Shown here in pieces: positions 42,425 to 58,815 of a stretch of 64,000 nucleotides of DNA (within the stretch, counting starts at the first letter, position 1; the number at the start of each line of letters is the position of its first letter). The translations under genes were made by a program, and so were the position numbers. Origin of the DNA: Streptomyces sp. NBC_01142. Lineage in GTDB: Bacteria > Actinomycetota > Actinomycetes > Streptomycetales > Streptomycetaceae. Below the pieces are notes generated by a model, which was not told the DNA's origin, ran no database searches, and saw only the letters and a list, made by a program, of their open reading frames with translations. The stretch is from positions 1,550,001 to 1,614,000 of the forward strand of contig NZ_JAPEOR010000003.1 in assembly GCF_026341125.1 (NCBI RefSeq), written 5' to 3'.

Positions 42425-42706
42425 TCATGGAGCCGCCGTGTGACATCGGAACGCGGAACCTACAGCTGCCATGGGGCTCTGAGCTGCGGTGAAGATGCCG
42501 GAACCCAAGATAGCTATGGTGCGCCACAGGTAGGCGTTGCTGACCTCTCCGCGCCGCACGAGCAGGCCCCAGCCGATGTCATCGGCGCCGAAGTCGCTCC
42601 GGCACATCGGACAGCCGGTGCCGGCGCGGTGCGAGGTGTAGTCCTTCGGCCAGTCGCCGCCGGCCGGCGAAAGCACGGAATGGAGCTGAGGACGGTCGGG
42701 AATCAC
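42425..42706 (-). pseudogene. HIT-family protein, N-terminal fragment
   Basis: The protein starts with an ATG overlapping the stop of the ABC transporter gene. It reads DWPKDYTSHRAGTGCPMCRS, then GWGLLVRRGEVSNAYLWR. This is the beginning of Streptomyces HIT proteins (CPMC; GEVS.AYL.R). After about residue 62 the homology ends, and the HxHxH catalytic region is missing. The gene was thus cut near 42520, close to the MITE-like element. It marks the broken left edge of the biosynthetic cluster. Confidence 0.65.
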
Positions 42707-44757
42707 GCTGCCTCACCGGTGGTGCGCTGCTGGAGTTCCCACAGGGACCGGAACAGTCCCGGTTCCCGGGTGAGTTCCTCGTACGATCCTTCCTGGACGA
42801 TGCGTCCCTGGTCGAGGACGATGATCTTGTCCGCAATGGCGACGTTGGCGAGCCGGTGAGTGATCAGCAGGATCGCCCGGTCCTTGGCCAGGTTCCGCAG
42901 CCCGGTGAAGATGCGATGTTCGGCCCGCGCATCGAGGGCCGCGGTGGGCTCGTCCATCACCAGCAGAGCCGCCTGCCGGTGGAACGCCCTGGTCAGCACC
43001 ACCCTCTGCCACTGGCCCCCGGACAGTTGCTGGCCGCCGAACCACTCCGACGTCAGCAGGGTGTCCAGACCGGACCGGAGGCTGGGCAGCATGTCCGTCG
43101 CCCCGGACGCCTCGCACGCGGCGAGCACAGCGGCGTCTGCTGTATCCCCCTGCCCGAACGTGATGTTGTCCCGCATGCTCAGGGGCAGGTAGGTGTACTT
43201 CTGCGGGACCAGGGCGACATGCTTCCACGCCTCCCAGGGATCCATCTCGGCCGTAGTCGTGTGGTCCCAGGCCACCTCGCCGGCCGTGGGCAGCAGCAGA
43301 CCGCAGATCAGCCGCGACAGCGTGGACTTGCCCGACCCGTTCTCTCCCACCAGCGCCACGATCTCCCCGCGCCGCACCTGGAGGGAGACCCCACTGAGAC
43401 TGTCCTTCGGGGCGCCGTCGTACCGGTAGGTGACGTCGCGAACCTCGAACCGCTCCGGCGGGGCGGACAGCATCTTCGTGCCCCGGGAGGCTGCCATGGC
43501 CTGCCCGTGGGCGTTGTCGAGGAAGTTCTGCCAGTCCTGCACGTACCAGCCGGTACGCACCAATCGGGCCCCGCCGTTGATGATGCCGCGCACGGACCCG
43601 GTCGCCGTCTGCAGGGCAAAAACCGCACCGCCGCCAGCCGCAAGGCCCATGCGGCCGGAGGCCAAGAGCCACAGCAGCGCGGCCCACACTGCGGCCGCCG
43701 CTACTCCGCCGGCAACCGCGCCGGCCAGTCCCATCCACGCGCCGGTGTCCGCGGCCTTGCGCTCGGAGGCGTTGACCGAGGCGGCGAGGCGGCGATACCG
43801 GGCGGTGAGGAAGGGCCCGGCCAGGCAGGCCCTCATCTCCTCGCTGGACTCCATGTAGGCCATGTGCCAGCGGAGCTTGTGCAGCATCCTGCGACGCCCG
43901 GAAGTCTCCAGGCCCGCCAGGTACACCACCCGAGCGGCCCTCACGTACGCGGCTGCCTGTGGCAGACACGCCAGGAGGAGCAGAGGAAGAAGCGCCGGAT
44001 GCAGCACGGCGAGAACGGTCGCGCCGGCGGCGAGCGTAGCCGTGGCGGCCAGCACGTCCTGCGCCTCGTCTACCAGGTCCGGAGTGACTTGGGCGCCGCG
44101 GTCGGCGATGTCGTAGAAGTCGTTGTAGCCGGGCTTGTTGTTCGCCGCCAGCTCCGCGCTGAGCGCGGCCTCGATCATCGTCAGCTCCGCGGCCCGGGCG
44201 AGCACCGGCCGCAGCCTCCCGGTCAGCCACGTCACCGTGATCCCCAGCAATGCCCGCAGCCCGGCGGCCGCGGCGACGACCGCAAGCTGTGGCGCCGCTT
44301 CCCACAGGCGTTCGGTGATGTCGCCCGACGAGATCAGCGCGGTGATCGTCCCCGTGACGGCGAGCAGCCCCAGCGCGGCGAGAACGCCGGTTCCGATCTG
44401 GCACGCCAGCAGTCCGGCCGTCGCGCCCCGGTCTACCTGCCAGGCCATCTTCAACGAGCGCAGAACCAACGCGGGCAGCCGTCGCGCCATGGTGCCGGTG
44501 GTCAGCTGCGCACCAGCCTGATGCCTGGACTCGTCCCGGTACAGGAACTCCTCGTCCTGCGCTCTGCTCGCGTCGCCCGAAGACCCGGCCTCCGACGTGC
44601 TGGCATCCGGCTGGTCCTGTGTGCTGGCCGAGGTCAACGTGGCCCCCTTTGACGGTCGCTGCGGCTGGGTCGTGAAGCTCAACGACCCGGCATGGATTTC
44701 GAACACCTGTGTTTCAGTCGAGCTTGGAACCCCGGAATAGAGCGCACGGCGGAGCAT
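42703..44757 (-). CDS. ABC transporter, fused permease-ATPase (exporter type)
   Basis: The protein is up to 684 residues. Its first ~100 residues are disordered, and the true start may be one of several downstream codons. Six membrane helices follow (for example GLLACQIGTGVLAALGLLAV, ATLAAGATVLAVLHPALLPL). The ATPase has Walker A VALVGENGSGKSTLSRL, Q-loop LVPQKYTYL, signature QLSGGQWQRVVLTRAF, Walker B ALLVMDEPTAALDAR and the H-loop LLITHRLANVA. It is half of a homodimeric exporter. It is the last full gene of the leftward operon and is a good candidate for peptide or product export. There is no N-terminal C39 peptidase domain, so core release would need another protease. Confidence 0.88.
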   Translation of the reverse strand: MLRRALYSGVPSSTETQVFEIHAGSLSFTTQPQRPSKGATLTSASTQDQPDASTSEAGSSGDASRAQDEEFLYRDESRHQAGAQLTTGTMARRLPALVLRSLKMAWQVDRGATAGLLACQIGTGVLAALGLLAVTGTITALISSGDITERLWEAAPQLAVVAAAAGLRALLGITVTWLTGRLRPVLARAAELTMIEAALSAELAANNKPGYNDFYDIADRGAQVTPDLVDEAQDVLAATATLAAGATVLAVLHPALLPLLLLACLPQAAAYVRAARVVYLAGLETSGRRRMLHKLRWHMAYMESSEEMRACLAGPFLTARYRRLAASVNASERKAADTGAWMGLAGAVAGGVAAAAVWAALLWLLASGRMGLAAGGGAVFALQTATGSVRGIINGGARLVRTGWYVQDWQNFLDNAHGQAMAASRGTKMLSAPPERFEVRDVTYRYDGAPKDSLSGVSLQVRRGEIVALVGENGSGKSTLSRLICGLLLPTAGEVAWDHTTTAEMDPWEAWKHVALVPQKYTYLPLSMRDNITFGQGDTADAAVLAACEASGATDMLPSLRSGLDTLLTSEWFGGQQLSGGQWQRVVLTRAFHRQAALLVMDEPTAALDARAEHRIFTGLRNLAKDRAILLITHRLANVAIADKIIVLDQGRIVQEGSYEELTREPGLFRSLWELQQRTTGEAA

Positions 44758-44880
44758 GCGGGATGCACCGACCCTTGGGGTCTACGGGTGGAGCCGCTGA
44801 GTGGAGATGGCCGAAACGCCGAGACTGGTGTTCCGGCCCCTTGCCTCGGGTGGCCCGGCGGCACAGCGGTCGTTCGGCCG

Positions 44881-45720
44881 TCACATGCGGGCGATGTCAA
44901 GGGTGACGATGACCGGGAGATGATCGCTCAGCTGCTGGGTGGTGGCGTCGTCGAGCACCTCGTAGGAGTGCAGAGCCGGGGCGAGTGCGGGGGAGAGCAG
45001 GACATGGTCCGCTCGGTGGTCCCAATTCTGTTCCGGGTTCATGTGCCCCGCTGTGCGGGGGATGGGCTGCTCGAGCTGAACGGGTGGGTCGACGAAGCCG
45101 GCGTGCACGAGCGCGCGGATCGCCCGGCGGTCCGCGCCGCCGTAAGAGCCGTCGGGCAGCATCATGCGGTGCCCGGAGTGCTGGTGCGCGGGGATCAGGC
45201 CCCAGTCCTCCGGCTCTTCGTCGTCGGCACCGGGGGTGTTGAGATCTCCGGCCAGCAGGGTGCGTCCGCCGGCGTACTCGGTCACCCACTGGACTTCCGC
45301 CAGCCGGTCCTGTGGGCTGAACGGGTCGAGATGGGTGTGGACGAGCACGACCGGATCCTGGACCCCGGTGATGTGCAACCGGGTTCGCATGACGGTGTGG
45401 TGGAAGTTGCCGCATGCCACGTCGGGGGAGAACCCCAGGCACCGCACCCGTGGCCACCGGTAGAACGTCACGAGATGACACCCGTGGCTGCGTGACCGCG
45501 CGAGCAGAGGCTGCATCCCCAACCGCTCTGCGGTCGCGTACACGCGTTCGGAATCCTTCTGGTCCCAGTGTTTGGCCTCCTGAACGTTCAGCACGTCCAG
45601 GTTCAGGCCACCCAGAAGGCGAACTTGGTCCTCCCAGCGCTCCTGGCCGCCGTTGAGGAGGGTGTAGCTGCCCACACGCAGCTGCCGGTCCGTCGGTACG
45701 AGGAGTGGTGTGTCAGTCAT
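44881..45720 (-). CDS. Endonuclease/exonuclease/phosphatase (EEP)-fold protein
   Basis: The 279-residue protein carries the EEP motifs in order: VGSYTLLNGG (metal-side Asn), VLNVQEAKHW (Glu), VLVHTHLDPFSPQ (His region), TLLAGDLNTPG (Asp-x-Asn) and QLSDHLPVIVTLD (Asp-His). There is no signal peptide, so it acts in the cytosol. EEP enzymes include AP endonucleases as well as lipid and nucleotide phosphatases. Lying next to an AlkC-type glycosylase on the same strand, it could cut the abasic sites the glycosylase leaves. EEP genes of this kind also occur elsewhere in Streptomyces (see 60269), so the repair role is tentative. Confidence 0.75.
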   Translation of the reverse strand: MTDTPLLVPTDRQLRVGSYTLLNGGQERWEDQVRLLGGLNLDVLNVQEAKHWDQKDSERVYATAERLGMQPLLARSRSHGCHLVTFYRWPRVRCLGFSPDVACGNFHHTVMRTRLHITGVQDPVVLVHTHLDPFSPQDRLAEVQWVTEYAGGRTLLAGDLNTPGADDEEPEDWGLIPAHQHSGHRMMLPDGSYGGADRRAIRALVHAGFVDPPVQLEQPIPRTAGHMNPEQNWDHRADHVLLSPALAPALHSYEVLDDATTQQLSDHLPVIVTLDIARM

Positions 45721-45946: not shown

Positions 45947-47080
45947 TCAGGGGGCTAGGACGGTGAAGGCGACGGAGGGGAAGCGGCGCCCGTTGACCTG
46001 GAGGGCGATCGAGTACGCGCCGGGCGTCAGCTTCGCGTTGGCTGTCGAGCGCAGAACGTGGTCCTTGGCGATCGGCAGCTCGCTTTCGGGTTCGGCGGTG
46101 CCGCGCAGCAGGAAGTACACCTTCTCGCGTGGCTTGCCGGTCGGTGTCATCGACGAGATCACGAACATCACGTGCACCGGGACGGGCGCCGTGGTGGTGA
46201 GCGCGGCGGAGTAGCTGAGCGTGTCGCCGTCGGTGAGTTCGGTGCGCTTCAGGGTGAGGGGCGTGAGCTCGACCGGTGCGTCGTGGGCGTAGCCGAGGAA
46301 GGCGTAGGCGGCCGGCCATCCCTTCTTCAGCCTGCTCCGTAGAGCCTGGCGGGCGATGAAAGTGAAGTGCTTGTCGGCAGCGAGGCCGGAGTCTTTCCAG
46401 CGCTGAAGGGTGCCCAGCACCAAATCCGGCTGCGTAACGGACAGGTCGTGGAGGTGGTTGGCGACCGACGTGCGGACGTAGGTGCTGGAGTCGCCGTAGA
46501 GCTGTTCGAGCACGGGCAGCCCCACGTCAGCCGGCAGGGAGATACGTGGGGCACAGGGCAGCAGCGGACGGGTGGCTTCGCTCGCGAGCCTCCGGGTCCG
46601 ATGGTCGGCGTCGCGGGCCCAGGCCTCGATGGCCTTCATCGTCTCCTCGGGAAAGTCGTTGAGGAAGCCCCGCACGGCGACCTCTGCCGAGAAGTACCGG
46701 GTGAGGCGCGCGAGAGCGGCCAGAGCCTGGTCCAGGTACTCGCCGGTGCGAAGGTAGCGAGCCACGAAGTCGGAGTGGGGCGAGTAGATGTGCAGGCCGA
46801 AGTCGTTCAACACGCCGGCCGCTTCGGGGGTCGGCGGCAGTGAGCGCAGCAGCACATCGAGGGCCTCGGGGCCGGTGACCGGAAGGTAGGTGTGCAGTCC
46901 CTCGCTGGTGCGGGCGATCCGGGCTCCCAACTCCAGCCGAGGAAGGTCGGCCGTCACCGACTGCACGAAGCCGTCAGCGTCGAAGTCGGCGCAGACGCTG
47001 TGGACTTCGCGACCGATGCGGGCGATGCGGTCGGCGTTGAGGGCGGTCTCTTTGAGGGGAACCTTCACGGTCATGGGCAA
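45947..47080 (-). CDS. AlkC-like DNA alkylation repair glycosylase
   Basis: The 377-residue protein has a helical HEAT-like repeat domain: YLRTGEYLDQALAALARLTR, FLNDFPEETMKAIEAWARDA and DHRTRRLASEATRPLLPCAP. Further repeats are YVRTSVANHLHDLSVTQPDL and LVLGTLQRWKD. The C-terminal Ig-like beta domain (TLSYSAALTTTAPVPVHVMF onward, with KLTPGAYSIALQVNGRRFPS) is characteristic of AlkC within the AlkC/AlkD superfamily. AlkC enzymes excise N3-methyladenine and N3-methylcytosine without base flipping. Related AlkD-type genes serve as self-resistance in clusters for DNA-alkylating antibiotics. Here it lies between the TauD-type and EEP genes of the leftward operon. Confidence 0.82.
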   Translation of the reverse strand: MPMTVKVPLKETALNADRIARIGREVHSVCADFDADGFVQSVTADLPRLELGARIARTSEGLHTYLPVTGPEALDVLLRSLPPTPEAAGVLNDFGLHIYSPHSDFVARYLRTGEYLDQALAALARLTRYFSAEVAVRGFLNDFPEETMKAIEAWARDADHRTRRLASEATRPLLPCAPRISLPADVGLPVLEQLYGDSSTYVRTSVANHLHDLSVTQPDLVLGTLQRWKDSGLAADKHFTFIARQALRSRLKKGWPAAYAFLGYAHDAPVELTPLTLKRTELTDGDTLSYSAALTTTAPVPVHVMFVISSMTPTGKPREKVYFLLRGTAEPESELPIAKDHVLRSTANAKLTPGAYSIALQVNGRRFPSVAFTVLAP

Positions 47081-47126: not shown

Positions 47127-47999
47127 TCATCCAGCGGTGTGACGTGGGGCCGCGGGCTGCCGGACAGCGGCGCGGTACAGCAGCCGACGGTGGCGGGAGC
47201 TGTCGCAGGGAGAGGCAGTGTGGAGGGTGGCGAGGTTGTCCCACACGACCAGGTCGCCTTGGCTCCAGCGGTGGCTGTAGACGTACGGCGGGCTGGTCGT
47301 GTGCTCCAGCAGCTCGTCGAGCAGAGCGCGGCTCTCCTTCTCGGCGAGTGTGGTGATGCCGCTGATCACCATGGAGCCGAGCAGCAGCGATTGGGCGCCG
47401 GTGACCGGGTGGGTCAGGACGAGCGGGTGCTCAACCTCCGGGTGGCCGGCCAGGTTCCCGGCCGCGATCGACGACTGGCCGCCGCTGGCCTGGCTCTGCA
47501 GGGCACCGAGTTGCTCGATGGAGTGCACCGCGCGCACCCCCTCGATCCGCTGCCGCATCGCCGGGTGAAGGCCGGCGTAGGCGCGGGTCGCATCGGCGAA
47601 ACGGGTCTCGCCGCCCTGCGCGGGGGTGATGACCGAGTAGAGCATCGTCGCCGACATGAGCTGGGGCTTGAAGCTGTTGTCGGCGTGCCACTCCTCCTCG
47701 TTGTCCCCGTCGTAGATGCCGATGTGCTCGCCGTCCTCGACGATGTTGCTGATGACGGTCAGGCCGGGGAAGCCGCCGACGGCATATCGGCGGTCGACGC
47801 TGGTGTCCACCGTCCCGAAGCAGGAGGCGACGGTCAGGAGATCGGCGTGGGTCAGGTGCTGGCGGGGCACGATCAGCAGCCGGTGCTGGTGAAGGGCCGC
47901 CGCCAGCTGGGGCGCGAGGTTTTCGACGCCAATCGCGAGGTTGCAGTCGACGACGGCACCGAAGCCGCTCTCGTCGAGCGGGCGCAGCGACAGGGACAT
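47127..47999 (-). CDS. TauD/clavaminate-synthase-like Fe(II)/2-oxoglutarate oxygenase
   Basis: The 290-residue protein has the complete facial triad. NEEEWHADNSFKPQL supplies His and Asp (HxD), and VVWDNLATLHTASP supplies the distal His. The 2-oxoglutarate-binding Arg is in RHRRLLYRAAV. The pattern LLIVPRQHLTHADLLTVASC near the start is typical of TauD/TfdA enzymes. It probably hydroxylates or desaturates an amino acid or peptide side chain in this cluster. It lies 33 bases downstream of the LysRS-like gene and is co-directional. Confidence 0.9.
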   Translation of the reverse strand: MSLSLRPLDESGFGAVVDCNLAIGVENLAPQLAAALHQHRLLIVPRQHLTHADLLTVASCFGTVDTSVDRRYAVGGFPGLTVISNIVEDGEHIGIYDGDNEEEWHADNSFKPQLMSATMLYSVITPAQGGETRFADATRAYAGLHPAMRQRIEGVRAVHSIEQLGALQSQASGGQSSIAAGNLAGHPEVEHPLVLTHPVTGAQSLLLGSMVISGITTLAEKESRALLDELLEHTTSPPYVYSHRWSQGDLVVWDNLATLHTASPCDSSRHRRLLYRAAVRQPAAPRHTAG

Positions 48000-48032: not shown

Positions 48033-48911
48033 TCAGAACTGGGGCGACTGCTGGAAGACGGTGATGTCCTTGACGTCGGAGGCGGCCATGCACAGCCGCT
48101 CGATGCCGATGCCGAGTCCGACGCTGCCGGCTGGCACGCGCCCGGCGTCGATCGCCTCCCAGGCCAGGGCCTGCTCGTCGTCGTACAGGTCCACCGCGCG
48201 GGCCCGTTCGACGAACGCGGTTCGGTCGGGCTCGTCCTCGTACCCGTGGACGACCTCGATGCCGTCGACCAGGAGCTCGAAGCGGTTGAGGACTGCGGTT
48301 GTGCCGGGCGTGAGGCGGGCGCACGGCTCGTCCCCGCCGACCGGGTACTCGGTCAGGAAGAGCGCTGCGCCGGTGCTCTGGGTCTCCAGTTCGCGCTCCA
48401 CGTACTGCCCGAGCACCGCCTTGAACGGCACGTCCGCGCTCATGCCCAGGTGGGCGGCCATCCGCGTAGGGAGGTCGCCGAGGGGTTCGCGGTGCAGGTC
48501 GATGCCGAACTGGTCGCCGATATGGCCGGCGACGGAGACCCGCTGGGGGGTGTACGGGATGTGCGGGCCGATCAGCTTCTCGGCGAGCGCCAGGAGGAAG
48601 TCGAAGTCCTCGTCGGCGGCGTAGAGGTCGAGCATCTGGAATTCGGTCGCGTGCAGCTCGTCCGGCTTCTCGGGCCGGAAGCACGCGCCGATCTCGAAGA
48701 CCCGCCGGTGGTGTTCCAGGTTCACGCGCAGGGCCGGACCGATCATCGCCCGCAGGAACCGCCCGCCGTCATGGTCCACCGGCAGACGGCGCCCCGGGCC
48801 GAGGTCGGCTCTCCGCATCGTCGGGGTGCTCACCTCGACGAAGGTCTCCGCGCGGAGCGTGTCCCGCAGGCTGAACAGCAGGTTGGACTTCATGACGACG
48901 GGGTTGAGCAC
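48033..48911 (-). CDS. EpmA/LysRS-like class II aminoacyl-tRNA synthetase paralogue without anticodon domain
   Basis: The 292-residue protein equals only the catalytic core of LysRS. Motif 1 region is LRAETFVEVSTPTMRRADLG, motif 2 is RRVFEIGACFRPEKPDELHA (FRxE type), and motif 3 is SVGLGIGIERLCMAAS. The RFELLVDGIEVVHGYEDEPD block corresponds to the amino-acid pocket. There is no OB-fold anticodon-binding domain, as in EpmA (PoxA/GenX), which attaches beta-lysine to EF-P. It could activate an amino acid and transfer it to a protein or peptide, perhaps the Lys- and Asp-containing precursor; that is inference. It is the first gene of the leftward operon. Confidence 0.85.
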   Translation of the reverse strand: MLNPVVMKSNLLFSLRDTLRAETFVEVSTPTMRRADLGPGRRLPVDHDGGRFLRAMIGPALRVNLEHHRRVFEIGACFRPEKPDELHATEFQMLDLYAADEDFDFLLALAEKLIGPHIPYTPQRVSVAGHIGDQFGIDLHREPLGDLPTRMAAHLGMSADVPFKAVLGQYVERELETQSTGAALFLTEYPVGGDEPCARLTPGTTAVLNRFELLVDGIEVVHGYEDEPDRTAFVERARAVDLYDDEQALAWEAIDAGRVPAGSVGLGIGIERLCMAASDVKDITVFQQSPQF

Positions 48912-49416: not shown

Positions 49417-49629
49417 ATGACCGCTACCGCCGGAATGACCCCGGACACCGGCCTGAAGGCCGGCATGCGCCCGGACGCCGCCGACCTGAAGCTCGGGATG
49501 CGCCCCGACGCCCCCAGCCTGAAGGCCGGCATGCGCCCGGACGCCCCCGTGCTGAAGCTCGGGATGCGCCCCGACGCCGCCGACCTGAAGGCCGGCATGC
49601 GCCCGGACAGCGCCCTCGTCGCCGCCTGA
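49417..49629 (+). CDS. Multicore RiPP-like precursor peptide with five GMRPD repeats
   Basis: The 70-residue peptide starts at an ATG with GAGGGAG upstream. After a short leader-like MTATAGMTPDTG, which itself is a degenerate unit, come five 11-residue units: LKAGMRPDAAD, LKLGMRPDAPS, LKAGMRPDAPV, LKLGMRPDAAD and LKAGMRPDSAL, then VAA. The A and L forms alternate, and their codons alternate too, so the unit of duplication is 66 bp. There are no Cys, Ser-rich or aromatic residues. The invariant residues are Leu, Lys, Gly, Met, Arg, Pro and Asp. It is the first gene of an operon of guanidino- and oxygen-modifying enzymes. I know no described family with this repeat. Confidence 0.85.
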   Translation: MTATAGMTPDTGLKAGMRPDAADLKLGMRPDAPSLKAGMRPDAPVLKLGMRPDAADLKAGMRPDSALVAA

Positions 49630-50919: not shown

Positions 50920-52062
50920 ATGCCCCAGCCCGCGCCTGCCCCGCCGGCCCTGAACAGCTTCGACGAGTTCACCCGGCTCGACGAAGTCGTCCTCGGACGT
51001 GCCGATCACTACGACGCCCACCACACCGATACCTCGTGGCGACTGTTCTTCTACGACAACGTCGCCCCCGTCCTCGGCCGGCACACCAGCCCGTCGGGGG
51101 AGGAGCTCCTGCCGATCCCCGCACAGCTGGTCGACGAGCTCAACGAGGACATCGCCGGCCTGGCCGACGCCCTGACCGGATGCGGGGTGAAGGTCCTGCG
51201 GCCCGCGGCACCGGGCAAGGACGTCGACATCCGCTCCCCGCACTGGGACGCGAGGGCCACCCCGCCGCTCAACGTCCGCGATCAGACCATCATCCTCGGC
51301 AACACCATCGTGGAGACCCCACCCCACGTCCGCGCCCGCATCTTCGAGAACGACCTGCTCAAGCCGGCCTTCTACCGCTACTACGAGGCCGGAGCGAACT
51401 GGCTGAGCATGCCGCGGCCCGCCCTGGCCCGCGAGTCCCTGGACGCCGGCTACTTCACCCGCCAGGACCTGGACGTCAGCCGCGCCACCGACGGTGAGAC
51501 GGCCGGCGTGATCGAGGGCCTGGGGCTGGAGATGGTCTTCGACGGCGCGCAGTGCATGCGCCTGGGCCGCGACGTCCTGGTCAATGTCGCCAACCACAAC
51601 CACGAACTCGCCCTGCGCTGGCTCCGGGACAACCTGCGCGACCTGCGGTTCCACCGCCTGGACGCCATGGCCGACAACCACATCGACAGCGTCCTGGTCC
51701 CGCTGCGGCCCGGCCTGATGCTGCTGCGCTCCCCGGCCTACCTGAAGTACCTGCCCAAGGACATGCAGTCCTGGGACGTGATCTACGCCCCCGAGACCGA
51801 CGACGGCAACTTCCCGGACTACAGCGACCTCGGCTTCGTCATCCCCATCGGCAGCCGGTACATGGACATCAACCTCCTGTCCATCGACGAGAACACCGTC
51901 GTCGTCAACTCTCTCTACCCGGAGTTGATCGAGGTCCTGGAGTCCCGCGGGTTCACCGTCGTCCCGGTCCGCCACCGCCACCGGCGCCTGTTCGGCGGCG
52001 GCTTCCACTGCTTCACCCTCGACACCGTCCGCCGCGGCGGCCCCGAGGACTACCTCAGCTGA
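50920..52062 (+). CDS. Glycine-amidinotransferase-type enzyme
   Basis: The 380-residue protein has the AGAT/StrB1 pattern: NSFDEFTRLDEVVLGR at the start, MPRPALA, Asp in MVFDGAQCMRLGRD, His in MADNHIDSVLVPLRPG, and the nucleophilic Cys in FGGGFHCFTLDTVRRG. These enzymes transfer an amidino group from an arginine to an amine through a Cys-amidino intermediate. In this operon it could convert a core Arg to ornithine, or amidinate another amine such as a core Lys. A GAGGAGG ribosome site precedes the ATG. The length is normal. Confidence 0.88.
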   Translation: MPQPAPAPPALNSFDEFTRLDEVVLGRADHYDAHHTDTSWRLFFYDNVAPVLGRHTSPSGEELLPIPAQLVDELNEDIAGLADALTGCGVKVLRPAAPGKDVDIRSPHWDARATPPLNVRDQTIILGNTIVETPPHVRARIFENDLLKPAFYRYYEAGANWLSMPRPALARESLDAGYFTRQDLDVSRATDGETAGVIEGLGLEMVFDGAQCMRLGRDVLVNVANHNHELALRWLRDNLRDLRFHRLDAMADNHIDSVLVPLRPGLMLLRSPAYLKYLPKDMQSWDVIYAPETDDGNFPDYSDLGFVIPIGSRYMDINLLSIDENTVVVNSLYPELIEVLESRGFTVVPVRHRHRRLFGGGFHCFTLDTVRRGGPEDYLS

Positions 52063-52132
52063 CCCCGGCGCCCCACCACCGCGCCCCGTCTCCCCCGATC
52101 ACGGCAGCCCGACCCGACGTCAGGAGATCTTG

Positions 52133-53455
52133 ATGGACACCGCCTACCCCTGGCCGCCCGACCAGGCCTTCTGGACCGGCACCTTCCCCGGCGACACCAC
52201 CGGGCGGACCACGCCCTTCCTGTTCAAGGGCATCATCCCCGCCACCGCGGCCGGCCCGGACGACGTCCTGGCCGGGTTCGAGGCCATCCGCCGGGCCCAC
52301 AATGCCGGCACCGACATCAAGGCGCACGCGCGCGTCTACGTCGGCGAGGCCCGCCGCGACGACCTCCTGCTCCCGGCGCTGACTGCCCCGTCCTGGAGCG
52401 GGGGTGTGGACGCCTTCGTGCCGTGGATGCAGGATCTCGCGGGCGCCGAGCGGTTTTCCCTGGTCATCAACAACCTGGAGACCGTCAACCCCGCCCTCGC
52501 CGCCGGCCTCGGCACCTTCCTCAAGAGCCTCATCGACGGGTGGGGCCTGCCGCTGGGAGGCGCCGAACAGGTCGCGTTCGCCGGCAACTACAGCGGGACC
52601 GCGTTCGGGATCCACGAGGGCTACGAGGACGCCTTCCTCGTCCACCTCGGCCCCAACGCCAAGAACTTCTACTGCTGGCCCGCTGAGCAGTACGAGAAGC
52701 TCACCGGCGGAAAGCAGCCCACCTACGGCGACTACCGCGCGCTGCTGGAGGAGGCCGAGCACTTCCTGCTGGAGCCGGGCGACGCCCTGTTCCTGCCTCG
52801 CCGGGTCTTCCACGTCGGCACCCAGGACACCTTCTCCGTCTCGGTGGCCATGCCGCTGTACACCTACCCGTACGCGCAGATCCTGCAGAGCCGCATCATC
52901 CCGGACGTCCTCGCCGAACTGGGCGGTGACGGGCCCGACGACCCGCTCAACGAGCCCTCCGCGATGGCAGACGCGGCCGCCGGGCCCGGCGCCGTCGCCG
53001 ACCGGCTGGCCGGCGTCGGCCGCGAACTCCTGACCGTCGCCGCCGACCGCGTCCGCGGCGCGGCCCGCCAGCACGCCGAACAGCGGTGGGCCACGCTCCT
53101 CAGCAACGGCGGCTGGGAACTCGTCGAGGGCGACCTCGCCCGCCAGGAGGCCGCGGACGCCTTCGACCCCGAGCAGGTGACGCCGGGCGCCGAGATCACC
53201 CTGATCGCCCCGTACCAGGTGACCACCCTCAACGGCGACGACGACACCCACCAGGTCCTGCTGCGCGGCCACCAGCCGGGCGTCGCCCTCGACGTCGCGG
53301 CCCTGGACCGGGACACCGTCACCGCCCTCAACGACGGCGACACCATCGTCCTGCCCGACAACCCGGAACTCCTCGCGGCCTTCCGCGCCCTGGGAGCCAC
53401 CGGTGGCCTGCACCTGACCCCCCGCCCCGCCGACACCAAGGACGCCGACGCATGA
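52133..53455 (+). CDS. JmjC/cupin-type oxygenase
   Basis: The 440-residue protein starts at ATG behind CAGGAG. The JmjC-like double-stranded beta-helix holds FGIHEGYEDAFLVHLGPNAK (His161) and later GDALFLPRRVFHVGTQ (His227). A C-terminal helical and winged part follows, as in the ribosomal-protein hydroxylases (YcfD/NO66 group), of which YcfD hydroxylates an arginine. In the usual HxD/E signature the third position would be Gly163, with Glu162 adjacent. The metal site may therefore be altered (His-only, or open as in 2OG halogenases). The stop overlaps the HDO start (ATGA). The substrate may be the arginine of the core; this is inferred. Confidence 0.75.
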   Translation: MDTAYPWPPDQAFWTGTFPGDTTGRTTPFLFKGIIPATAAGPDDVLAGFEAIRRAHNAGTDIKAHARVYVGEARRDDLLLPALTAPSWSGGVDAFVPWMQDLAGAERFSLVINNLETVNPALAAGLGTFLKSLIDGWGLPLGGAEQVAFAGNYSGTAFGIHEGYEDAFLVHLGPNAKNFYCWPAEQYEKLTGGKQPTYGDYRALLEEAEHFLLEPGDALFLPRRVFHVGTQDTFSVSVAMPLYTYPYAQILQSRIIPDVLAELGGDGPDDPLNEPSAMADAAAGPGAVADRLAGVGRELLTVAADRVRGAARQHAEQRWATLLSNGGWELVEGDLARQEAADAFDPEQVTPGAEITLIAPYQVTTLNGDDDTHQVLLRGHQPGVALDVAALDRDTVTALNDGDTIVLPDNPELLAAFRALGATGGLHLTPRPADTKDADA

Positions 53456-54282
53456 CCCCCGACAACAGCCTCATCCAGGCCTACCTGAAGGCCCACCCCG
53501 AGACGCAGAGCGCCGTCAACGGCACCCTGCTGGGCAAGTTCACCTCCGGCAACGCCCTGGTCACCGCGCACCTGGCCCCGATGGTCGACTGGGCGTACGA
53601 GCGGATCGCCGAGAAGGTCGGCGCCGCCGACCTCAACGAGCGCCAGGCCCGGATGTACATCGAGGAGCTCTCGGTGTTCGCCCGCTACAACGCCCAGTTC
53701 CTCAAGGCGGCCGCCACCGGCGTGGAGGGGTTCTGCCCCGAGCTCGCGCACGAGCTGCGTCGCAACCACCTGGAGGAGGGCGGTGAGCGCGGCAAGGTGC
53801 CCGCGCACTACGTCCTCTACACCAACGCGCTCCTGTCCGACCTCGGCCTGCTCGTCAACGGCCACGTGCCCGCCCGCGAGACCGAGACGCTGGTCAACCT
53901 CCACCAGTGGATGGTCGGCTCGCACATGCCCAGCTTCATCGCCGGCGCCTACTACGCGACCGAGGCCGTGGCGATCGCCGAGACCGAGATCCTGCGCGAC
54001 ATCACCAACCGCTACGGCGAGCTGACCATCCAGCGCAGCGGCAGCGAGCTGAAGAACCTGCACTACTACTACGAGCTCCACCTCGACGAGGGGCACGAGG
54101 CCGCCCAGGTCGGCGGCATGAGCGTCGAGGCCGCCCACATCGAGGGCCTGGCCAGGTTCATCAAGGAGAGTGAACTCTTCCACATCGACCTGTCCCAGGC
54201 CCTCGGCGGCTGGCTGACGATCACCGAAGGGATGACACACTGGTGGGCTCAACTCGCCCACCGCGCCTCGGAGATGAACTGA
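53452..54282 (+). CDS. Haem-oxygenase-like diiron oxidase (HDO)
   Basis: The 276-residue protein starts at an ATG overlapping the previous stop. The helices carry the HDO ligand pattern: Glu71/72 in MYIEELSVFARYN, Glu109 and His119 in NHLEEGGERGKVPAHYVLY (spacing 10, as in SznF), Glu171 in AYYATEAVAIAE, and Asp212/His215 in YYELHLDEGHEAAQ. Where SznF has a His four residues before that Asp, this protein has Glu208. HDOs bind two irons and use O2 for N-hydroxylation, decarboxylation or C-C cleavage. SznF N-hydroxylates N-methylarginine. This gene and the adjacent cupin mirror the two SznF domains as separate proteins. Confidence 0.8.
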   Translation: MTPDNSLIQAYLKAHPETQSAVNGTLLGKFTSGNALVTAHLAPMVDWAYERIAEKVGAADLNERQARMYIEELSVFARYNAQFLKAAATGVEGFCPELAHELRRNHLEEGGERGKVPAHYVLYTNALLSDLGLLVNGHVPARETETLVNLHQWMVGSHMPSFIAGAYYATEAVAIAETEILRDITNRYGELTIQRSGSELKNLHYYYELHLDEGHEAAQVGGMSVEAAHIEGLARFIKESELFHIDLSQALGGWLTITEGMTHWWAQLAHRASEMN

Positions 54283-54713
54283 TGAACGCCACCCCCGACA
54301 TCGTCGCCGCAGCCCAGGAGCGCTCCGGTGGATGCCTGTGCGGACAGATCCGCTTCACCGTCAAGGGCGAGGCCGTCTACCCGCACACCTGCAGCTGCCC
54401 GCACTGCAAAAAGCTCGGCGGCGGCCCGATGATGTGGTGGGTCGGCTTCGCCCCCGAGGACGTCACCTGGACCAACGGCGCCGAGCCGAACTGGTTCACC
54501 ACGTTCGAGGGCGAGGCCCAGCGCGGCTTCTGCCCGAACTGCGGCAGCCGCCTCGCGGCGATCGACAAGGACGTCCCCGAACTCGGCATCGTCGTCACGG
54601 CCCTGGACGACACCAGCGGAGCCGACCTCGTCCCCGTCAACCAGTCTTTCCGCGACGACGCCGTGCACTGGCTGCCCCAGGTCCCCGACACCCAGAACAG
54701 CCCCGTCGGCTGA
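54282..54713 (+). CDS. GFA/CENP-V-family zinc protein
   Basis: The 143-residue protein overlaps the HDO stop by one base (TGATG). It has GGCLCGQIRFTV (CxC), TCSCPHCKKLGG (CxCxxC) and GFCPNCGSRL (CxxC), the zinc-binding set of GFA proteins. Family members act on S-hydroxymethyl-glutathione or serve as C-S lyases, and some bind small aldehydes. In a cluster expected to demethylate or oxidise N-methyl groups, handling of formaldehyde would make sense. A structural role is also possible. Confidence 0.85.
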   Translation: MNATPDIVAAAQERSGGCLCGQIRFTVKGEAVYPHTCSCPHCKKLGGGPMMWWVGFAPEDVTWTNGAEPNWFTTFEGEAQRGFCPNCGSRLAAIDKDVPELGIVVTALDDTSGADLVPVNQSFRDDAVHWLPQVPDTQNSPVG

Positions 54714-54843: not shown

Positions 54844-55710
54844 GTGCTCACCCCGCACGCCACCAGCGAGTACGGCGCCCTGCGCCACGTCGCCATGCGC
54901 TACGCCGGCGACGTCACCCCCGACCTCGACGGCCCCGACATCCACCCCGTCCTGACCCGCCAGAAGAGCACCAGCTCCTGGAAGCCGTACGACCCGTCCA
55001 CCGTCCGCACCCAGCAGGACACCCTGATCGACCTGCTGCGCAGCCGCGGCACCACGGTGACCCTCCTCGACGCCGCGCCGGGCTGTCCGGTCCAGCACTA
55101 CCCCCGCGACATCGCCTTCGTCATCGACCACGTCCTCGTCATGGCGCGCCTGAACTCCGCGCACCGCCTCCCCGAAGCCGACGCGCTCACCCCGCTCCTG
55201 ACCGACGCCCCGCACGTAGCCCACTTGGACGAGGGCACCGCCGAGGGCGGTGACGTCATCCTTCACACCGGCACCGTCCTGGTCGGCCTCGGCGAGGAGA
55301 CGTCCCCCGCGGGCGTGGGGGCGCTGCAGCGGGCGCTGGCTCACCACGGCGTCGACCGCGAGGTCCGCCCGGTCCACTTCGCCGTCGACGGCATCGTTCA
55401 CCTGGACGACCACTTCACGATCGTCGCGCCCGGCACCGCGCTCATCCACCGCGGCGTCTTCCCGCCCGCCGAATTGCGCTGGTTCGAGCGGCACTTCGAC
55501 CTCATCGACGTCACCGACGAGGAGGCGCGGGCTGTCCAGGCCAACGTCCTGGCGATCGCGCCGGACACCGTGATCCTCGCCGCCGGCAGCGACCGCATCG
55601 CCGCACAGCTCGCCGCACGCGGACTCGAGGTCCTCACCGTCGACTACTCCGAGGTCACCCGGATCCCCGGCTCGCTGCGCTGCACCACCCTGCCGCTGAC
55701 CCGCGCCTGA
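54844..55710 (+). CDS. Dimethylarginine dimethylaminohydrolase (DDAH)-type guanidino hydrolase
   Basis: The 288-residue protein belongs to the arginine-deiminase superfamily. QHYPRDIAFVIDHVLV carries the PRD motif, GTAEGGDVILHTG is the EGGD block, IVHLDDHFTIVAPG gives the catalytic His, and the nucleophilic Cys is in GSLRCTTLPLTR at the very C-terminus. The start is GTG after AGGAGAACCCATC. DDAHs turn N-methylated arginines into citrulline plus methylamine. With a PRMT-like methyltransferase in the same operon, it could remove excess methylarginine or make a citrulline on the peptide. Confidence 0.88.
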   Translation: MLTPHATSEYGALRHVAMRYAGDVTPDLDGPDIHPVLTRQKSTSSWKPYDPSTVRTQQDTLIDLLRSRGTTVTLLDAAPGCPVQHYPRDIAFVIDHVLVMARLNSAHRLPEADALTPLLTDAPHVAHLDEGTAEGGDVILHTGTVLVGLGEETSPAGVGALQRALAHHGVDREVRPVHFAVDGIVHLDDHFTIVAPGTALIHRGVFPPAELRWFERHFDLIDVTDEEARAVQANVLAIAPDTVILAAGSDRIAAQLAARGLEVLTVDYSEVTRIPGSLRCTTLPLTRA

Positions 55711-55778
55711 TCCACCCGCGCCCCGCCCGGCCGCCGCGCCGCCGTGTGCTCATCCGCCGCCCGACTCCTGGAGCTGCC

Positions 55779-57056
55779 GTGTCCGACCCGCTGCAGTCCT
55801 TGCTCCTCGCCGTCCCGGTCGTGGTCCTCGCCTGCCAGGCCGGCGGGCGGGCCGTCAGGCTGGTCGGCCAGCCGCCGGTCATCGGCGAGATCCTGGCCGG
55901 GATCCTGCTCGGCCCCTCGCTGCTCGGCTGGCTCGCCCCCGGCATCCAGCACCACCTCCTGCCGCCCTCGGCCCTGCCCATCACCTCCGCCCTGGGCAAC
56001 CTCGGCCTCCTGACGTTCCTCTTCCTGATCGGCCTGGAACTCGACCTCCGCAGCCTGGGCACCACCCGAGGCGCCGTGGCCGCCGTCAGCCTCACCGGAG
56101 TCCTGCTCCCCTTGGCCCTCGGCGCCGCACTGGCCCTCGCCCTCTACCCGCACTTCGCCCCCGACGGCATCGGCCGCCTGCCGTTCACCCTGTTCGTCGC
56201 CGTCGCCCTGAGCATCACCGCCTTCCCGGTCCTCGCACGGATCCTCGCCGACCGCGGCCTGGAGACCACGCCCCTGGGCACCTTCGCCCTGGCCTGCGCC
56301 GCCACCGACGACGCCCTCGCCTGGTGCCTGCTCACCGCCGCCGTCGCCCTGGCCACCTCCGGCACCGCCCTGTCGGCCCTGACCACCCTCGCCCTGACCG
56401 CCGCCTTCGCCGCCTGCCTCACCTTCGTCCTGCGCCCACTGCTCCGCGTCCTGCTCGAGCGCGCCAGCCGAACCTCCGACGACCTCGTCCTGGCCCTCCT
56501 CTTCGCCGGGCTTTGCTTCAGCGCCTACACCACCGACCAGATCGGCGTGCACCCCGCCTTCGGCGCCTTCCTGTTCGGCGCCGCCGCTCCCCGCGGCCTT
56601 CCGGCCGTCGAACGCAGCGCCGCGCGCATCCGCGCCGTCGTCCTGCCGCTCCTGCTGCCGCTGTTCTTCGTCGACACCGGCCTGCACACCGATTTCTCCA
56701 CGCTGCCGGCCGGACAGTGGGGCTGGGGAGCAGCGATCCTGGCCGTCGCCGTCGTCGGCAAGTGGGGCGGCGCGGCCGGCGCAGCCAGGCTCACCGGCTC
56801 CGACTGGCGCTGGTCGGCCGCCGTCGGCACGCTCATGAACTGCCGCGGCCTGACCGAACTCGTCGTCCTCGGCATCGGCCTCCAGACCGGCGTCATCACC
56901 GAGCCCCTGTTCACTCTCCTGGTGGTCATGACCGTCATCACCACCGCGGCCACCGCACCGATACTCAGGCGCGTGGCCGGCGACGACCCAAGGATGACCC
57001 CGCCGGCACCGCACGACGATCCGGAGCGCGATACCGCCCGAGAGGTCACCCGATGA
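55779..57056 (+). CDS. CPA2-type cation/proton antiporter
   Basis: The protein of about 425 residues has 11-12 membrane helices. It starts at the GTG giving MSDPLQSLLLAVPVVVLACQ (GGAG 5 bases upstream), which I prefer to the GTG at 55746. Typical Na+/H+ exchanger blocks are GQPPVIGEILAGILLGPSLL, FLFLIGLELDLRSLGTTRGA and SITAFPVLARILADRG. A C-terminal MNCRGLTELVVLGIGLQTGV follows. Such antiporters recur in Streptomyces secondary-metabolite clusters and may export product or support self-resistance. The stop overlaps the next start (ATGA). Confidence 0.88.
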   Translation: MSDPLQSLLLAVPVVVLACQAGGRAVRLVGQPPVIGEILAGILLGPSLLGWLAPGIQHHLLPPSALPITSALGNLGLLTFLFLIGLELDLRSLGTTRGAVAAVSLTGVLLPLALGAALALALYPHFAPDGIGRLPFTLFVAVALSITAFPVLARILADRGLETTPLGTFALACAATDDALAWCLLTAAVALATSGTALSALTTLALTAAFAACLTFVLRPLLRVLLERASRTSDDLVLALLFAGLCFSAYTTDQIGVHPAFGAFLFGAAAPRGLPAVERSAARIRAVVLPLLLPLFFVDTGLHTDFSTLPAGQWGWGAAILAVAVVGKWGGAAGAARLTGSDWRWSAAVGTLMNCRGLTELVVLGIGLQTGVITEPLFTLLVVMTVITTAATAPILRRVAGDDPRMTPPAPHDDPERDTAREVTR

Positions 57057-57631
57057 CCCCGGCCCCGAACCCGGTTCTGGACGCGGTCCTCAGCCGGCGC
57101 AGCGCCCCCCGCCTGACCGAGCCCGCACCCGGCCGCGAAGAACTGGAGCGCCTCGTCCAAGCCGCGGCCACTGCCCCCGACCATGGACGACTGCGGCCCT
57201 GGCGGCTGGTCGCAGTGTCCGGGGACGAACGGGCCCGACTCGGCGATGTGCTCGGCGAAGCCGCCACCTCGCCGGAGCAGGCCCGGCGCGCCGCCACGAA
57301 GCCCCTGCGCGCCCCGCTGCTCCTGTCGATCGTGCACAGCCCCGTACCCGACCACTCGAAGATTCCCGAGTGGGAGCAACTGGCCGCCACAACCGGCATG
57401 GTCACCACACTCTCCCTGCTCCTGCACAGCCACGGCTGGGCATCGATCTGGCGCACCGGTCAAGCCGTCCAAGCACCCCGAGTACGCAAGTACCTCGGTG
57501 TCGCCGAAAGGGAGCAGCTGCTGGGCTGGCTGTACGTAGGCACTCGTTGCACGTCCAGAACCTCCCCTGAACGGCAGCCGTTCGACACCACCACCAAGAT
57601 CACCTGGCCGCTCGGCGGCGCTGGCGTCTGA
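57053..57631 (+). CDS. Nitroreductase-family flavoprotein
   Basis: The 192-residue protein has the nitroreductase fold pattern: AVLSRRSAPRLTEPAPGREE (FMN phosphate-binding Arg/Ser), AATAPDHGRLRPWRLVAVSG, and TTGMVTTLSLLLHSHGWASI followed by the GWLYVGT strand. FMN-dependent reductases reduce nitro, enone or quinone groups. In a cluster that may form N-oxidised species, it could reduce or detoxify such a group. Its ATG lies within the antiporter stop, so it is part of the operon. Confidence 0.83.
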   Translation: MTPAPNPVLDAVLSRRSAPRLTEPAPGREELERLVQAAATAPDHGRLRPWRLVAVSGDERARLGDVLGEAATSPEQARRAATKPLRAPLLLSIVHSPVPDHSKIPEWEQLAATTGMVTTLSLLLHSHGWASIWRTGQAVQAPRVRKYLGVAEREQLLGWLYVGTRCTSRTSPERQPFDTTTKITWPLGGAGV

Positions 57632-57708
57632 AGCCGCCGCCCGTCCGCAGTCACCCAGAACAGGCCGAACAGCCGACCCACCCCGAGGACCACCGCGAAA
57701 GGCGAGAC

Positions 57709-58815
57709 ATGCGCAGCATCCAGGAGATCGAGACACGCGGGCACTCCCTTCGCGTGTGCGTGGACCCGGAGCCCGAGCAAGAAGGCCGCCCCACCCTGTG
57801 GCCGAGCGTCGGGGAGTACCCCATCTACGACCCGTTCCTCTACACGACCATGACCACCGATGACGAACGCAACAAGCGTTTCCGAGCGGCCCTGTCCCAA
57901 CTGGCGCCGGACAAGCGCATCCTGGACATCGGGACCGGACAAGACCTTCTCTGGGCGCGTGAAGGTCTGCAGGCGGGAGCCCGGCACGCCCTGGCCCTCG
58001 AGGTCATCGAGGACGCGTTCCATAAGGCGGCCGCAAACCTGCCGTCCTTCGACCCACAGGACCGGATCACGCTTCTGCTCGGCCAGTCGACCCACCTTCA
58101 GTTCGCACCCAGAGCCGATGTCTGCGTCGCGGAGATCATCGGATCCCTGGCCGGAGCCGAAGGCGCGGCAGCCGTCCTGACCGACGCACGCAACCGCCAC
58201 CTGGAGCCCGGGGGACTGGTGGTGCCCCACCGTGCGGTGACCCTGGCCGCAGCGGTCCGCCTGGCCGACCTGCTCCCCGAGCAGCCCGTAGCGTTCGCCG
58301 AGGCCTCTGTCCCGTACCTGCGCAGCATCTTCGACTGGCACGGCGCGCCCTTCGACGTGCGACTCCGGGTCGAAAACCCATCCGCCAGCGCGCTGCTCTC
58401 CGAGGGCGCGCCCGTCGAGGTACTCGACTTCAACGGCGATCTGCAGACGGAGCAGCGCACGACAACGCGCATAGCCATCACGCGGCCCGGTCACATGGAC
58501 GGCGTACTCACCTGGCTCAACCTCTGGTGCCTGCCGGACGAAGCGCCACTTGACGCCCTACACATGAAGACGAACTGGGCCACCATCTACCTGCCGCTCT
58601 TCGACAACCCCGTGCCGGTCGCGGCCGGAGACGTCCTGGAGCTCACCTTCGCGGCCACCCTCAGCGACGACGGCGTTCATCCGGACTATCACCTCAGCGC
58701 CGACCTGCACACCGCCGACGGGCAACAGCACCACGCCACCCTGGCATCCCCGCACCACGGTGGCTCCTTTAGGGCCCACCCGATCTACCAGGCCCTCTTC
58801 CCACAAGCTGATTAG
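57709..58815 (+). CDS. Protein-arginine-methyltransferase-like enzyme
   Basis: The 368-residue protein follows the PRMT order. The N-terminal Y-rich helix PIYDPFLYTTMTTDDERNKR comes first, then SAM motif I ILDIGTGQDLLW (about residues 71-82), acidic residue LALEVIEDAF (Glu98), and a double-E-loop equivalent AEIIGSLAGAEG (Glu142, Glu151). A C-terminal beta barrel with TWLNLWCLPDEAP and MKTNWATIYLPLFDNPV is in the place of the THW loop. PRMTs methylate arginine guanidino nitrogens; SznE of streptozotocin biosynthesis is a free-arginine relative. Here the core-peptide Arg is the obvious candidate. It is the last gene of the rightward operon. Confidence 0.82.
   Translation: MRSIQEIETRGHSLRVCVDPEPEQEGRPTLWPSVGEYPIYDPFLYTTMTTDDERNKRFRAALSQLAPDKRILDIGTGQDLLWAREGLQAGARHALALEVIEDAFHKAAANLPSFDPQDRITLLLGQSTHLQFAPRADVCVAEIIGSLAGAEGAAAVLTDARNRHLEPGGLVVPHRAVTLAAAVRLADLLPEQPVAFAEASVPYLRSIFDWHGAPFDVRLRVENPSASALLSEGAPVEVLDFNGDLQTEQRTTTRIAITRPGHMDGVLTWLNLWCLPDEAPLDALHMKTNWATIYLPLFDNPVPVAAGDVLELTFAATLSDDGVHPDYHLSADLHTADGQQHHATLASPHHGGSFRAHPIYQALFPQAD

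What the first reader, a model, noticed from the sequence alone, without database searches (positions are those of the whole stretch)
42703..58815. Candidate new RiPP class: repeat-core peptide with a guanidino/oxidase enzyme set
Seen: a repeat-rich 70-residue peptide gene opens an operon of desaturase-like, amidinotransferase, JmjC/cupin, HDO, GFA, DDAH-type, antiporter, nitroreductase and PRMT-like genes. The divergent operon has LysRS-like, TauD, AlkC-like, EEP and ABC exporter genes. Known: four of these families act on arginine or its guanidine. Inference: the invariant Arg of each GMRPD repeat is the modified residue. None of the classic RiPP enzymes (lanthionine synthetase, YcaO, radical SAM, B1 leader peptidase) is seen, so this does not fit a class I know.
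Basis: partly seen in the sequence, partly recalled or inferred. Interest (0 to 1): 0.95.

Follow-up and report, generated by a model that had tools for sequence, protein, structure and literature searches.

The report
Repeat-peptide cluster with DNA-repair gene
Scattered actinobacteria share a gene cluster in which a small protein built of Lys-x-Gly-Met-Arg-Pro repeats lies beside oxidising and guanidine-handling enzymes and a relative of a DNA-repair enzyme; the repeats are predicted to be turned into a natural product that likely attacks DNA, with the repair enzyme predicted to protect its maker.

Summary
A 70-residue repeat-peptide gene (49417-49629) opens an enzyme operon, opposite a divergent LysRS-like/TauD/AlkC operon. 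The peptide occurs in all 20 distinct clusters examined (the window and 19 fetched through other genes), including a Nocardia cluster with another gene order. Its unit is K-x-G-M-R-P-[D/G]; in these clusters Lys (rarely Gln) and Arg are kept or lost together, so Lys is as suspect as Arg. The core is peptide, GntB-like desaturase, amidinotransferase, JmjC, HDO, GFA, LysRS-like ligase, TauD and AlkC; PRMT (9 of 20), antiporter, nitroreductase, EEP and ABC genes vary. Best reading: a leaderless, multi-core RiPP family whose Lys/Arg side chains are oxidised to a genotoxin. The chemistry is inferred; no product is shown. Thiovarsolins (repeat core, HDO on Arg) and biphenomycins (JmjC on Arg-derived Orn) are the nearest precedents, so this is a new family of a known kind.

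The parts
49417..49629 (+). Predicted precursor peptide, 70 aa: five K-x-G-M-R-P-D units after one degenerate GMTPD unit
   Evidence: present in 20 of 20 distinct clusters
49764..50807 (+). Membrane desaturase/hydroxylase, nearest to GntB L-arginine gamma-hydroxylase
   Evidence: PF00487 100.8 bits; NF041365 112.5 bits against cut-off 380; 20 of 20 clusters
50920..52062 (+). Amidinotransferase (StrB1/SxtG/AGAT family)
   Evidence: 1bwd E 3.2e-42; C364, H254, D256 invariant in 20 of 20 clusters
52130..53455 (+). JmjC/cupin oxygenase of the ROX (YcfD) type with an HxG metal motif; gene overlaps the next one
53452..54282 (+). HDO-type (DUF3865, CADD-like) oxidase
   Evidence: PF12981 40.8 bits; 3b5o E 5.6e-08; 20 of 20
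54282..54713 (+). GFA family protein
   Evidence: PF04828 69.8 bits; 19 of 20
54844..55710 (+). DDAH/arginine-deiminase family enzyme
   Evidence: PF02274 72.2 bits; C280 in 18 of 18; gene in 18 of 20
55746..57056 (+). Cation:proton antiporter (accessory)
   Evidence: PF00999 191 bits; 14 of 20
57053..57631 (+). Nitroreductase (accessory)
   Evidence: PF00881 74.2 bits; 13 of 20
57709..58815 (+). PRMT-like methyltransferase (accessory)
   Evidence: 4m36 E 9.9e-10; 9 of 20
48033..48911 (-). LysRS/EpmA-like ligase without anticodon domain, altered amino-acid pocket
   Evidence: PF00152 74.2 bits; PDB alignments; intact in 19 of 20
47127..47999 (-). TauD-type Fe/2OG dioxygenase with an HxD motif
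   Evidence: PF02668 176.4 bits; 20 of 20
45947..47080 (-). AlkC-family DNA glycosylase, predicted self-resistance
   Evidence: profile match to 5vi0 over positions 8-374 of 377, E 1.2e-65; 19 of 20
44881..45720 (-). EEP-family protein next to AlkC (accessory, weak ExoIII likeness)
   Evidence: PF03372 just below cut-off; at this place 87% or more identical in 4 of 20 (window, L014-L016), a distant EEP (27-29%) beside AlkC in 2 more, L022 and L023
42703..44757 (-). ABC exporter (variable)
   Evidence: PF00005 99 bits; beyond AlkC in 10 of 20 at about 52% identity or more, three of these cut by the locus end
58904..60226 (-). NsdA-family regulator at the cluster's edge
   Evidence: NF053720 212 bits against cut-off 75; 16 of 20

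Best explanation
The cluster likely makes a ribosomal, multi-core peptide natural product: the translated K-x-G-M-R-P-[D/G] repeats are predicted to be oxidised at their Lys and Arg side chains into a DNA-alkylating compound, and the AlkC-family glycosylase encoded beside the enzymes likely cuts the resulting adducts out of the producer's own DNA. Inferred steps: (1) the ROX-type JmjC enzyme and the HDO, whose genes overlap, act together on the repeat, the HxG site leaving room for a halide or for a hydroxylation of the AspH type; (2) the GntB-like enzyme and TauD add further hydroxyls; (3) the amidinotransferase, helped in most clusters by the DDAH-type enzyme, moves or removes the guanidine; (4) the LysRS-like ligase adenylates a carboxylate other than free lysine; (5) host peptidases free the units, as proposed for thiovarsolins; (6) PRMT, nitroreductase and transporters vary the product. 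Shown: gene content, conservation of peptide and enzymes, predicted fold and motifs.
For: The repeat peptide is in 20 of 20 distinct clusters; the 19 beside the window were fetched through JmjC, HDO or amidinotransferase, not the peptide. In Nocardia L026 the gene order differs and the peptide sits between HDO and desaturase. Unit states: Lys and Arg 119, Gln and Arg 2, neither 11, Lys without Arg 0, Arg without Lys or Gln 0. Synonymous change at fixed residues: Arg CGC 65, CGG 30, CGT 24; Pro CCG 65, CCC 54. JmjC: fold of YcfD, an arginyl hydroxylase of a ribosomal protein; HxG in 20 of 20, against Asp at that place in 18 of 19 alignable JmjC_2 proteins of 20 found in 14 of 21 genomes searched, the window's own included. 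AlkC: E 1.2e-65 to AlkC 5vi0; strongly matching copies in 8 of 249 family genomes, among them all 6 cluster carriers. Precedents: HDO VarO on Arg of a repeat core, HDO MboA on peptide-bound Arg, JmjC BipG in a RiPP, other DNA glycosylases as self-resistance in genotoxin clusters.
Against: No product, mass or activity is known. I saw no published case of AlkC itself in self-resistance (searches; passages concern AlkZ relatives), and the AlkC Trp position (recalled) is Trp in 10, Cys in 8 and Gly in 1 of 19. Two family genomes hold a cluster-type AlkC with no other cluster gene within about 10 kb (G177, and G036 where it is split), and L017 has the cluster without AlkC, though its LysRS-like frame is broken and a transposase-like ORF lies there. 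AlkC distances correlate less with those of the other enzymes (r 0.60-0.88) than six of these do with one another (0.91-0.98). HxG also occurs in the hydroxylase AspH (PMC12816917, passage), so it does not prove halogenation. One usual HDO ligand position is not His. No leader was evident, and no protease family was found among the 16 proteins scanned. Two database peptides keep Lys but not Arg in one unit (P0010 KAGMWPD, P0019 KAGMLPD).
Confidence: 0.5

Rival explanations
1. It is a RiPP, but the product does not damage DNA: AlkC guards against reactive by-products (formaldehyde or oxidised amines from the HDO and oxygenases), or its HEAT-repeat body has been re-used.
For: A GFA-family gene in 19 of 20 clusters would fit formaldehyde release; the AlkC Trp position varies; AlkC family members also occur in 34 family genomes of 249 that lack the cluster.
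Against: The Glu aligned with AlkC's catalytic Glu (residue recalled from the literature) is kept in 19 of 19; the match to AlkC covers nearly the whole protein.
Confidence: 0.25
2. The enzymes act on free Arg or Lys, as in guanitoxin or saxitoxin pathways, and the repeat peptide is a regulator or an unrelated neighbour.
For: GntB and the StrB1/SxtG-type amidinotransferases act on small molecules (matches; roles recalled); the LysRS-like fold suggests a free amino acid.
Against: The peptide is in 20 of 20 clusters and inside the operon in Nocardia; its repeat sequence is under protein-level constraint; the nearest solved relatives of the JmjC enzyme act on ribosomal proteins.
Confidence: 0.15
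3. The peptide is a reusable carrier: units are built up on it, partly by the LysRS-like ligase, and a small amino acid is released, in the manner of pearlins (recalled).
For: Leaderless array, and a ligase with the adenylation arginines kept and a changed amino-acid pocket.
Against: No tRNA-dependent PEARL-type (lantibiotic dehydratase-like) family appeared among the 16 proteins scanned.
Confidence: 0.1

Closest known systems
Thiovarsolins (VarA, TfuA-YcaO RiPPs)
   Same: Repeating core with Arg, HDO gene product (VarO) acting on Arg, an amidinotransferase gene, no dedicated protease (PMC6511847, passages)
   Different: No YcaO, TfuA or ATP-grasp family among the proteins scanned here; core APR against KxGMRP; JmjC, desaturase, TauD, LysRS-like and AlkC genes added
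Biphenomycins
   Same: JmjC oxygenase and a guanidine-removing enzyme act on peptide-bound Arg/Orn (PMC12707348 and PMC12257519, passages)
   Different: Those use MNIO, B12-radical SAM and TldD protease, none seen here; their JmjC is a hydroxylase of Orn
Mangotoxin (MboA/MboE)
   Same: HDO on peptide-bound Arg and an amidinotransferase-like protein acting as a deiminase (PMC13185094, passages)
   Different: Mangotoxin's tripeptide is made by ligases, not the ribosome
Pheganomycin-type clusters
   Same: Related amidinotransferase (45% identity in L033)
   Different: PGM1-type peptide ligase and dpgA-C genes of that locus were not seen here
BesD/BesC lysine halogenase-HDO pair
   Same: 2OG halogenase paired with an HDO (BesC's Lys cleavage with formaldehyde release: PMC13108848, passages; BesD and its HxG motif recalled)
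   Different: The 2OG enzyme here has a JmjC/ROX fold, and its likely substrate is a peptide

Membership tests
RiPP (general) | Short gene-encoded precursor conserved beside the modifying enzymes | tested here: met
   20 of 20 distinct clusters
RiPP (general) | Separate leader and core | tested here: not met
   44-residue precursors start the repeats after about four residues (L011, L023-L025)
RiPP (general) | Mature product contains modified precursor residues | not testable with these tools
   needs mass spectrometry
Thiovarsolin family | YcaO and TfuA genes | tested here: not met
   no such family among the 16 proteins scanned with Pfam and NCBIfam
Thiovarsolin family | Tandem repeated core with Arg | tested here: met
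AlkC DNA glycosylase | Full-length sequence match to AlkC | tested here: met
   5vi0, profile positions 8-374 of 377, E 1.2e-65
AlkC DNA glycosylase | Catalytic Glu and Trp (E156, W164; recalled, paper not held) | tested here: inconclusive
   Glu in 19 of 19; Trp position W 10, C 8, G 1
AlkC DNA glycosylase | Excision of alkylated bases | not testable with these tools
   needs an enzyme assay
ROX/YcfD protein oxygenase | JmjC plus C-terminal domains in the same arrangement | tested here: met
ROX/YcfD protein oxygenase | HxD...H iron ligands | tested here: not met
   HEG...H in 20 of 20
Fe/2OG halogenase | HxG/A...H motif | tested here: met
   JmjC_2 proteins of relatives have HxD (18 of 19)
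Fe/2OG halogenase | Chloride binding and halogenation | not testable with these tools
   AspH shows HxG can hydroxylate
GntB L-arginine gamma-hydroxylase | NCBIfam NF041365 score | tested here: not met
   112.5 bits against cut-off 380
EpmA/LysRS | Lysine pocket (LysU E240, E278, N424, E428; numbers and roles recalled) | tested here: not met
   E278 to Asp, N424 to His, E428 to Asp, no acid in the segment MIGPALRVNL that aligns with E240; motif 2 and 3 Arg kept; EpmA model TIGR00462 73.1 bits against cut-off 286.9
SznF (streptozotocin) | HDO and cupin in one chain | tested here: not met
   separate genes 52130-53455 and 53452-54282; the one-chain layout is from PMC13108848, passage

The most novel reading that the evidence does not exclude
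A ribosomal genotoxin: a ROX-fold JmjC enzyme with an HxG site chlorinates Lys or Arg side chains of each KxGMRP unit, the HDO and guanidine enzymes turn this into an aziridine- or mustard-like warhead on a gene-encoded peptide, and an AlkC glycosylase is the built-in immunity. It would be a peptide-acting halogenase of the JmjC family and base-excision self-resistance in a RiPP pathway.
Probability: 0.2. Interest if true: 0.92.

Novelty: new variant of a known kind. Interest (0 to 1): 0.74.

Why it matters
If right, genomes can encode repeat-templated peptides that are converted to DNA-reactive compounds, and the AlkC gene gives a handle to find them, as AlkZ did for known alkylating genotoxins. 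It would also add a JmjC enzyme with a halogenase-like metal site and an aminoacyl-tRNA-synthetase-like ligase to RiPP chemistry. The clusters found lie in Streptomyces, Kitasatospora, Peterkaempfera, Amycolatopsis and Nocardia, so there are many strains to test.

Tried and rejected
Paper searches (10 of 10 used). GMRPD and GMRPG gave only unrelated texts. DUF3865 gave one paper, unrelated by title and abstract. AlkC with glycosylase or cluster terms listed papers on AlkZ/AlkD-type resistance and others, none on this cluster by title and abstract. RiPP with HDO or amidinotransferase terms listed the mangotoxin paper, an HDO review and the RiPPER paper, among others. Halogenase with JmjC and HxG gave the AspH paper. 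RiPP plus JmjC gave two biphenomycin papers. RiPP plus genotoxin plus glycosylase gave one paper, on AlkZ. The library holds open-licence papers only, so absence from it is weak evidence that the cluster is unpublished. Papers were read as passages, none in full.

Considered and set aside: EEP as the AP-endonuclease partner of AlkC. A close EEP sits beside AlkC in 4 of 20 clusters and a distant one in 2 more; in L018, L019 and L031 the best EEP match lies at the other edge, beyond the regulator, so the count of 7 overstates it. PRMT as a core enzyme (9 of 20). The streptozotocin route (HDO and cupin not fused, PRMT optional). In a phylum-wide sample the HDO turned up in only 2 of 396 genomes, the window's own and G044. 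G086 (L013) matched JmjC at about 30% but carries no cluster, so it was dropped. The first structure job, with 6 sequences, was poor (pLDDT 58) and was not used. HDO metal ligands were only read from the alignment: E108, E109, H119, E171, D212 and H215 are fixed in 20 of 20, but position 208, where I would expect a His ligand (recalled), holds Arg 9, Glu 8, Asp 2, Gln 1, so its metal site stays open. Of 27 plasmid records with the amidinotransferase I opened 3 (H1, H12, H14); only H1 is this cluster.

A gene counts as present if its best single match has at least 40% identity and covers over 75%; contig or locus ends therefore lower some counts (ABC 7 there, 10 after with three cut; L027 cannot be judged for ABC). 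One search missed L021, whose array mixes Lys and Gln, and chose a wrong start for L008; one search includes both arrays. The 11 units with neither Lys nor Arg include the N-terminal GMTPD units (7 Thr-for-Arg units) and may include chance matches upstream of the start. The JmjC_2 control profile was seeded with HxD proteins of the same set.
Full report
Observation. The window lies in a 10.1-Mb genome, probably Streptomyces: the same-genus genome G044 has a contig of 6,902,998 bases, the length listed for Streptomyces sp. WMMB303. It holds two divergent operons around a 70-residue peptide gene at 49417-49629. The peptide reads as five K-x-G-M-R-P-D units behind one degenerate GMTPD unit, with a good ribosome-binding site. 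On the + strand follow a GntB-like membrane desaturase, an amidinotransferase, a JmjC_2 oxygenase, a DUF3865 HDO, a GFA protein, a DDAH/ADI-type enzyme, an antiporter, a nitroreductase and a PRMT-like methyltransferase; on the - strand a LysRS-like ligase, TauD, AlkC, an EEP protein and an ABC exporter. JmjC and HDO, HDO and GFA, and antiporter and nitroreductase overlap at stop and start codons, as translationally coupled genes do.

Conservation. A JmjC search of 249 genomes of the family found the cluster in 6, including the window's own; a seventh match was an approximately 30% relative without a cluster. A scan of genome contigs (one genome for each of 84,980 species) with an HDO alignment gave 15 loci, all of them this cluster, one of them (L014) truncated. 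One plasmid record was added out of 11 whose amidinotransferase is at least 67% identical. After merging two duplicates there are 20 distinct clusters, the window included. The repeat peptide is in 20 of 20. By the criterion (best match at least 40% identical over more than 75%): JmjC, HDO, amidinotransferase, desaturase and TauD 20; LysRS-like, AlkC and GFA 19; DDAH-type 18; NsdA-family regulator 16; antiporter 14; nitroreductase 13; PRMT 9. The ABC exporter follows AlkC in 10 of 20, three of them cut by the locus end; a close EEP sits beside AlkC in 4 of 20 and a distant one in 2 more. The Nocardia cluster L026 has the fewest genes, with the peptide between HDO and desaturase and no match for DDAH, PRMT, nitroreductase or antiporter. 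This fixes the core at nine genes.

The peptide. Arrays have 4 to 10 units. Over all units with the x.x.G.x.x.P.[DG] frame, 119 have Lys and Arg, 2 Gln and Arg, 11 neither, and none has Lys without Arg or Arg without Lys or Gln. Met is replaced by Val, Ile or Thr in six of 124 units and by Gln or Ala in database peptides, so it is not essential. Codons for Gly, Arg and Pro vary while the residues stay, which points to selection on the peptide. The shortest forms (44 residues) have no leader. The database search gave 24 peptides at E up to 1, the last ones doubtful; two of them, P0010 and P0019, keep Lys but not Arg in one unit.

AlkC. A profile of six cluster copies matches the solved AlkC glycosylase 5vi0 over nearly its whole length (E 1.2e-65). 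The Glu that lines up with the catalytic Glu known to me from recall is kept in 19 of 19 copies; the Trp of the same motif is not. Of 249 family genomes, 40 have an AlkC match; 8 have a strongly matching, cluster-type copy, namely the 6 cluster carriers plus G177 and G036, and 32 have only weaker ones. Around the copies of G177 and G036 no other cluster gene was found within about 10 kb. L017, the one cluster without AlkC, has a transposase-like ORF at that place and a broken LysRS-like frame. Other DNA glycosylases in genotoxin clusters are self-resistance factors (PMC9040887 and PMC8934636, passages). So AlkC is read here as immunity; this is inference.

JmjC enzyme. With 84 sequences the model is confident (pLDDT 92.6). 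The best solved relatives are YcfD-type ribosomal oxygenases, described as arginyl hydroxylases of ribosomal protein L16, aligned from residue 6 to 429 of 440. The metal motif is H-E-G...H in 20 of 20 clusters; its two His and the Gly are kept in at least 98% of 116 aligned sequences. Of 20 JmjC_2 proteins found in 14 of 21 genomes (the window's own and relatives), 19 could be aligned there: 18 have Asp and one has Asn, so the Gly is a mark of this family. HxG is typical of 2OG halogenases, but AspH hydroxylates with it (PMC12816917, passage).

Ligase. The LysRS-like protein keeps the motif 2 and motif 3 arginines but has Asp, His and Asp where LysU has E278, N424 and E428, and no acid in the segment that aligns with E240 (the numbers and roles are recalled). 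It should adenylate something other than free lysine. It was found at E up to 1e-40 in 6 of 249 family genomes, the 6 cluster carriers.

Mechanism and comparison. Thiovarsolins give the nearest working parallel: a repeated core with Arg, an HDO that appears to dehydrogenate that Arg, an amidinotransferase gene not needed for the known product, and presumed host peptidases. Mangotoxin shows an HDO and an amidinotransferase-like deiminase acting on peptide-bound Arg. Biphenomycins show a JmjC enzyme in a RiPP. Among the 16 proteins scanned here no YcaO, TfuA, ATP-grasp, radical SAM or MNIO family appeared; a ROX-fold HxG enzyme, a GntB-like enzyme, a LysRS-like ligase and AlkC are added. I therefore read it as a new RiPP family whose product likely alkylates DNA. 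What is shown: the genes, their conservation, the repeat constraint, the predicted fold and motifs. What is inferred: that the peptide is the substrate, which side chains change, halogenation, DNA damage and immunity.

Noticed in passing
39721-42033 (+): A 770-residue NACHT-domain protein lies just outside the cluster; PADLOC gave only short, weak matches at its P-loop.
   Followed up: partly
60269-61156 (-): A second EEP-like protein beyond the regulator; in plasmid L031 three EEP genes and a DUF6302 gene sit beyond the regulator too.
   Followed up: partly
L022 and L023, beside AlkC: A distant EEP-family protein (27-29% identity) directly follows AlkC, as the close one does in the window; possibly a repair partner.
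   Followed up: partly
5203-6455: 138-bp tandem repeats, about 9 copies.
   Followed up: no
11 plasmid records, L031: Amidinotransferases at least 67% identical lie on Streptomyces plasmids of 223-518 kb, so the cluster probably travels on plasmids; only one of the 11 was opened.
   Followed up: partly
L023: AlkC (78%) and TauD (72%) are closer to the window than LysRS-like, desaturase, amidinotransferase, JmjC and HDO (56-69%), which suggests recombination of that part.
   Followed up: no
P0017, P0024: Peptides with GMRPG or KLGMR repeats, one named as Kroppenstedtia, may be distant relatives or chance; their neighbourhoods were not seen.
   Followed up: no
L032, L033: Amidinotransferases at 45-49% identity lie beside a P450 in one case and near a PGM1-related ligase with dpgA-C in the other.
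   Followed up: no
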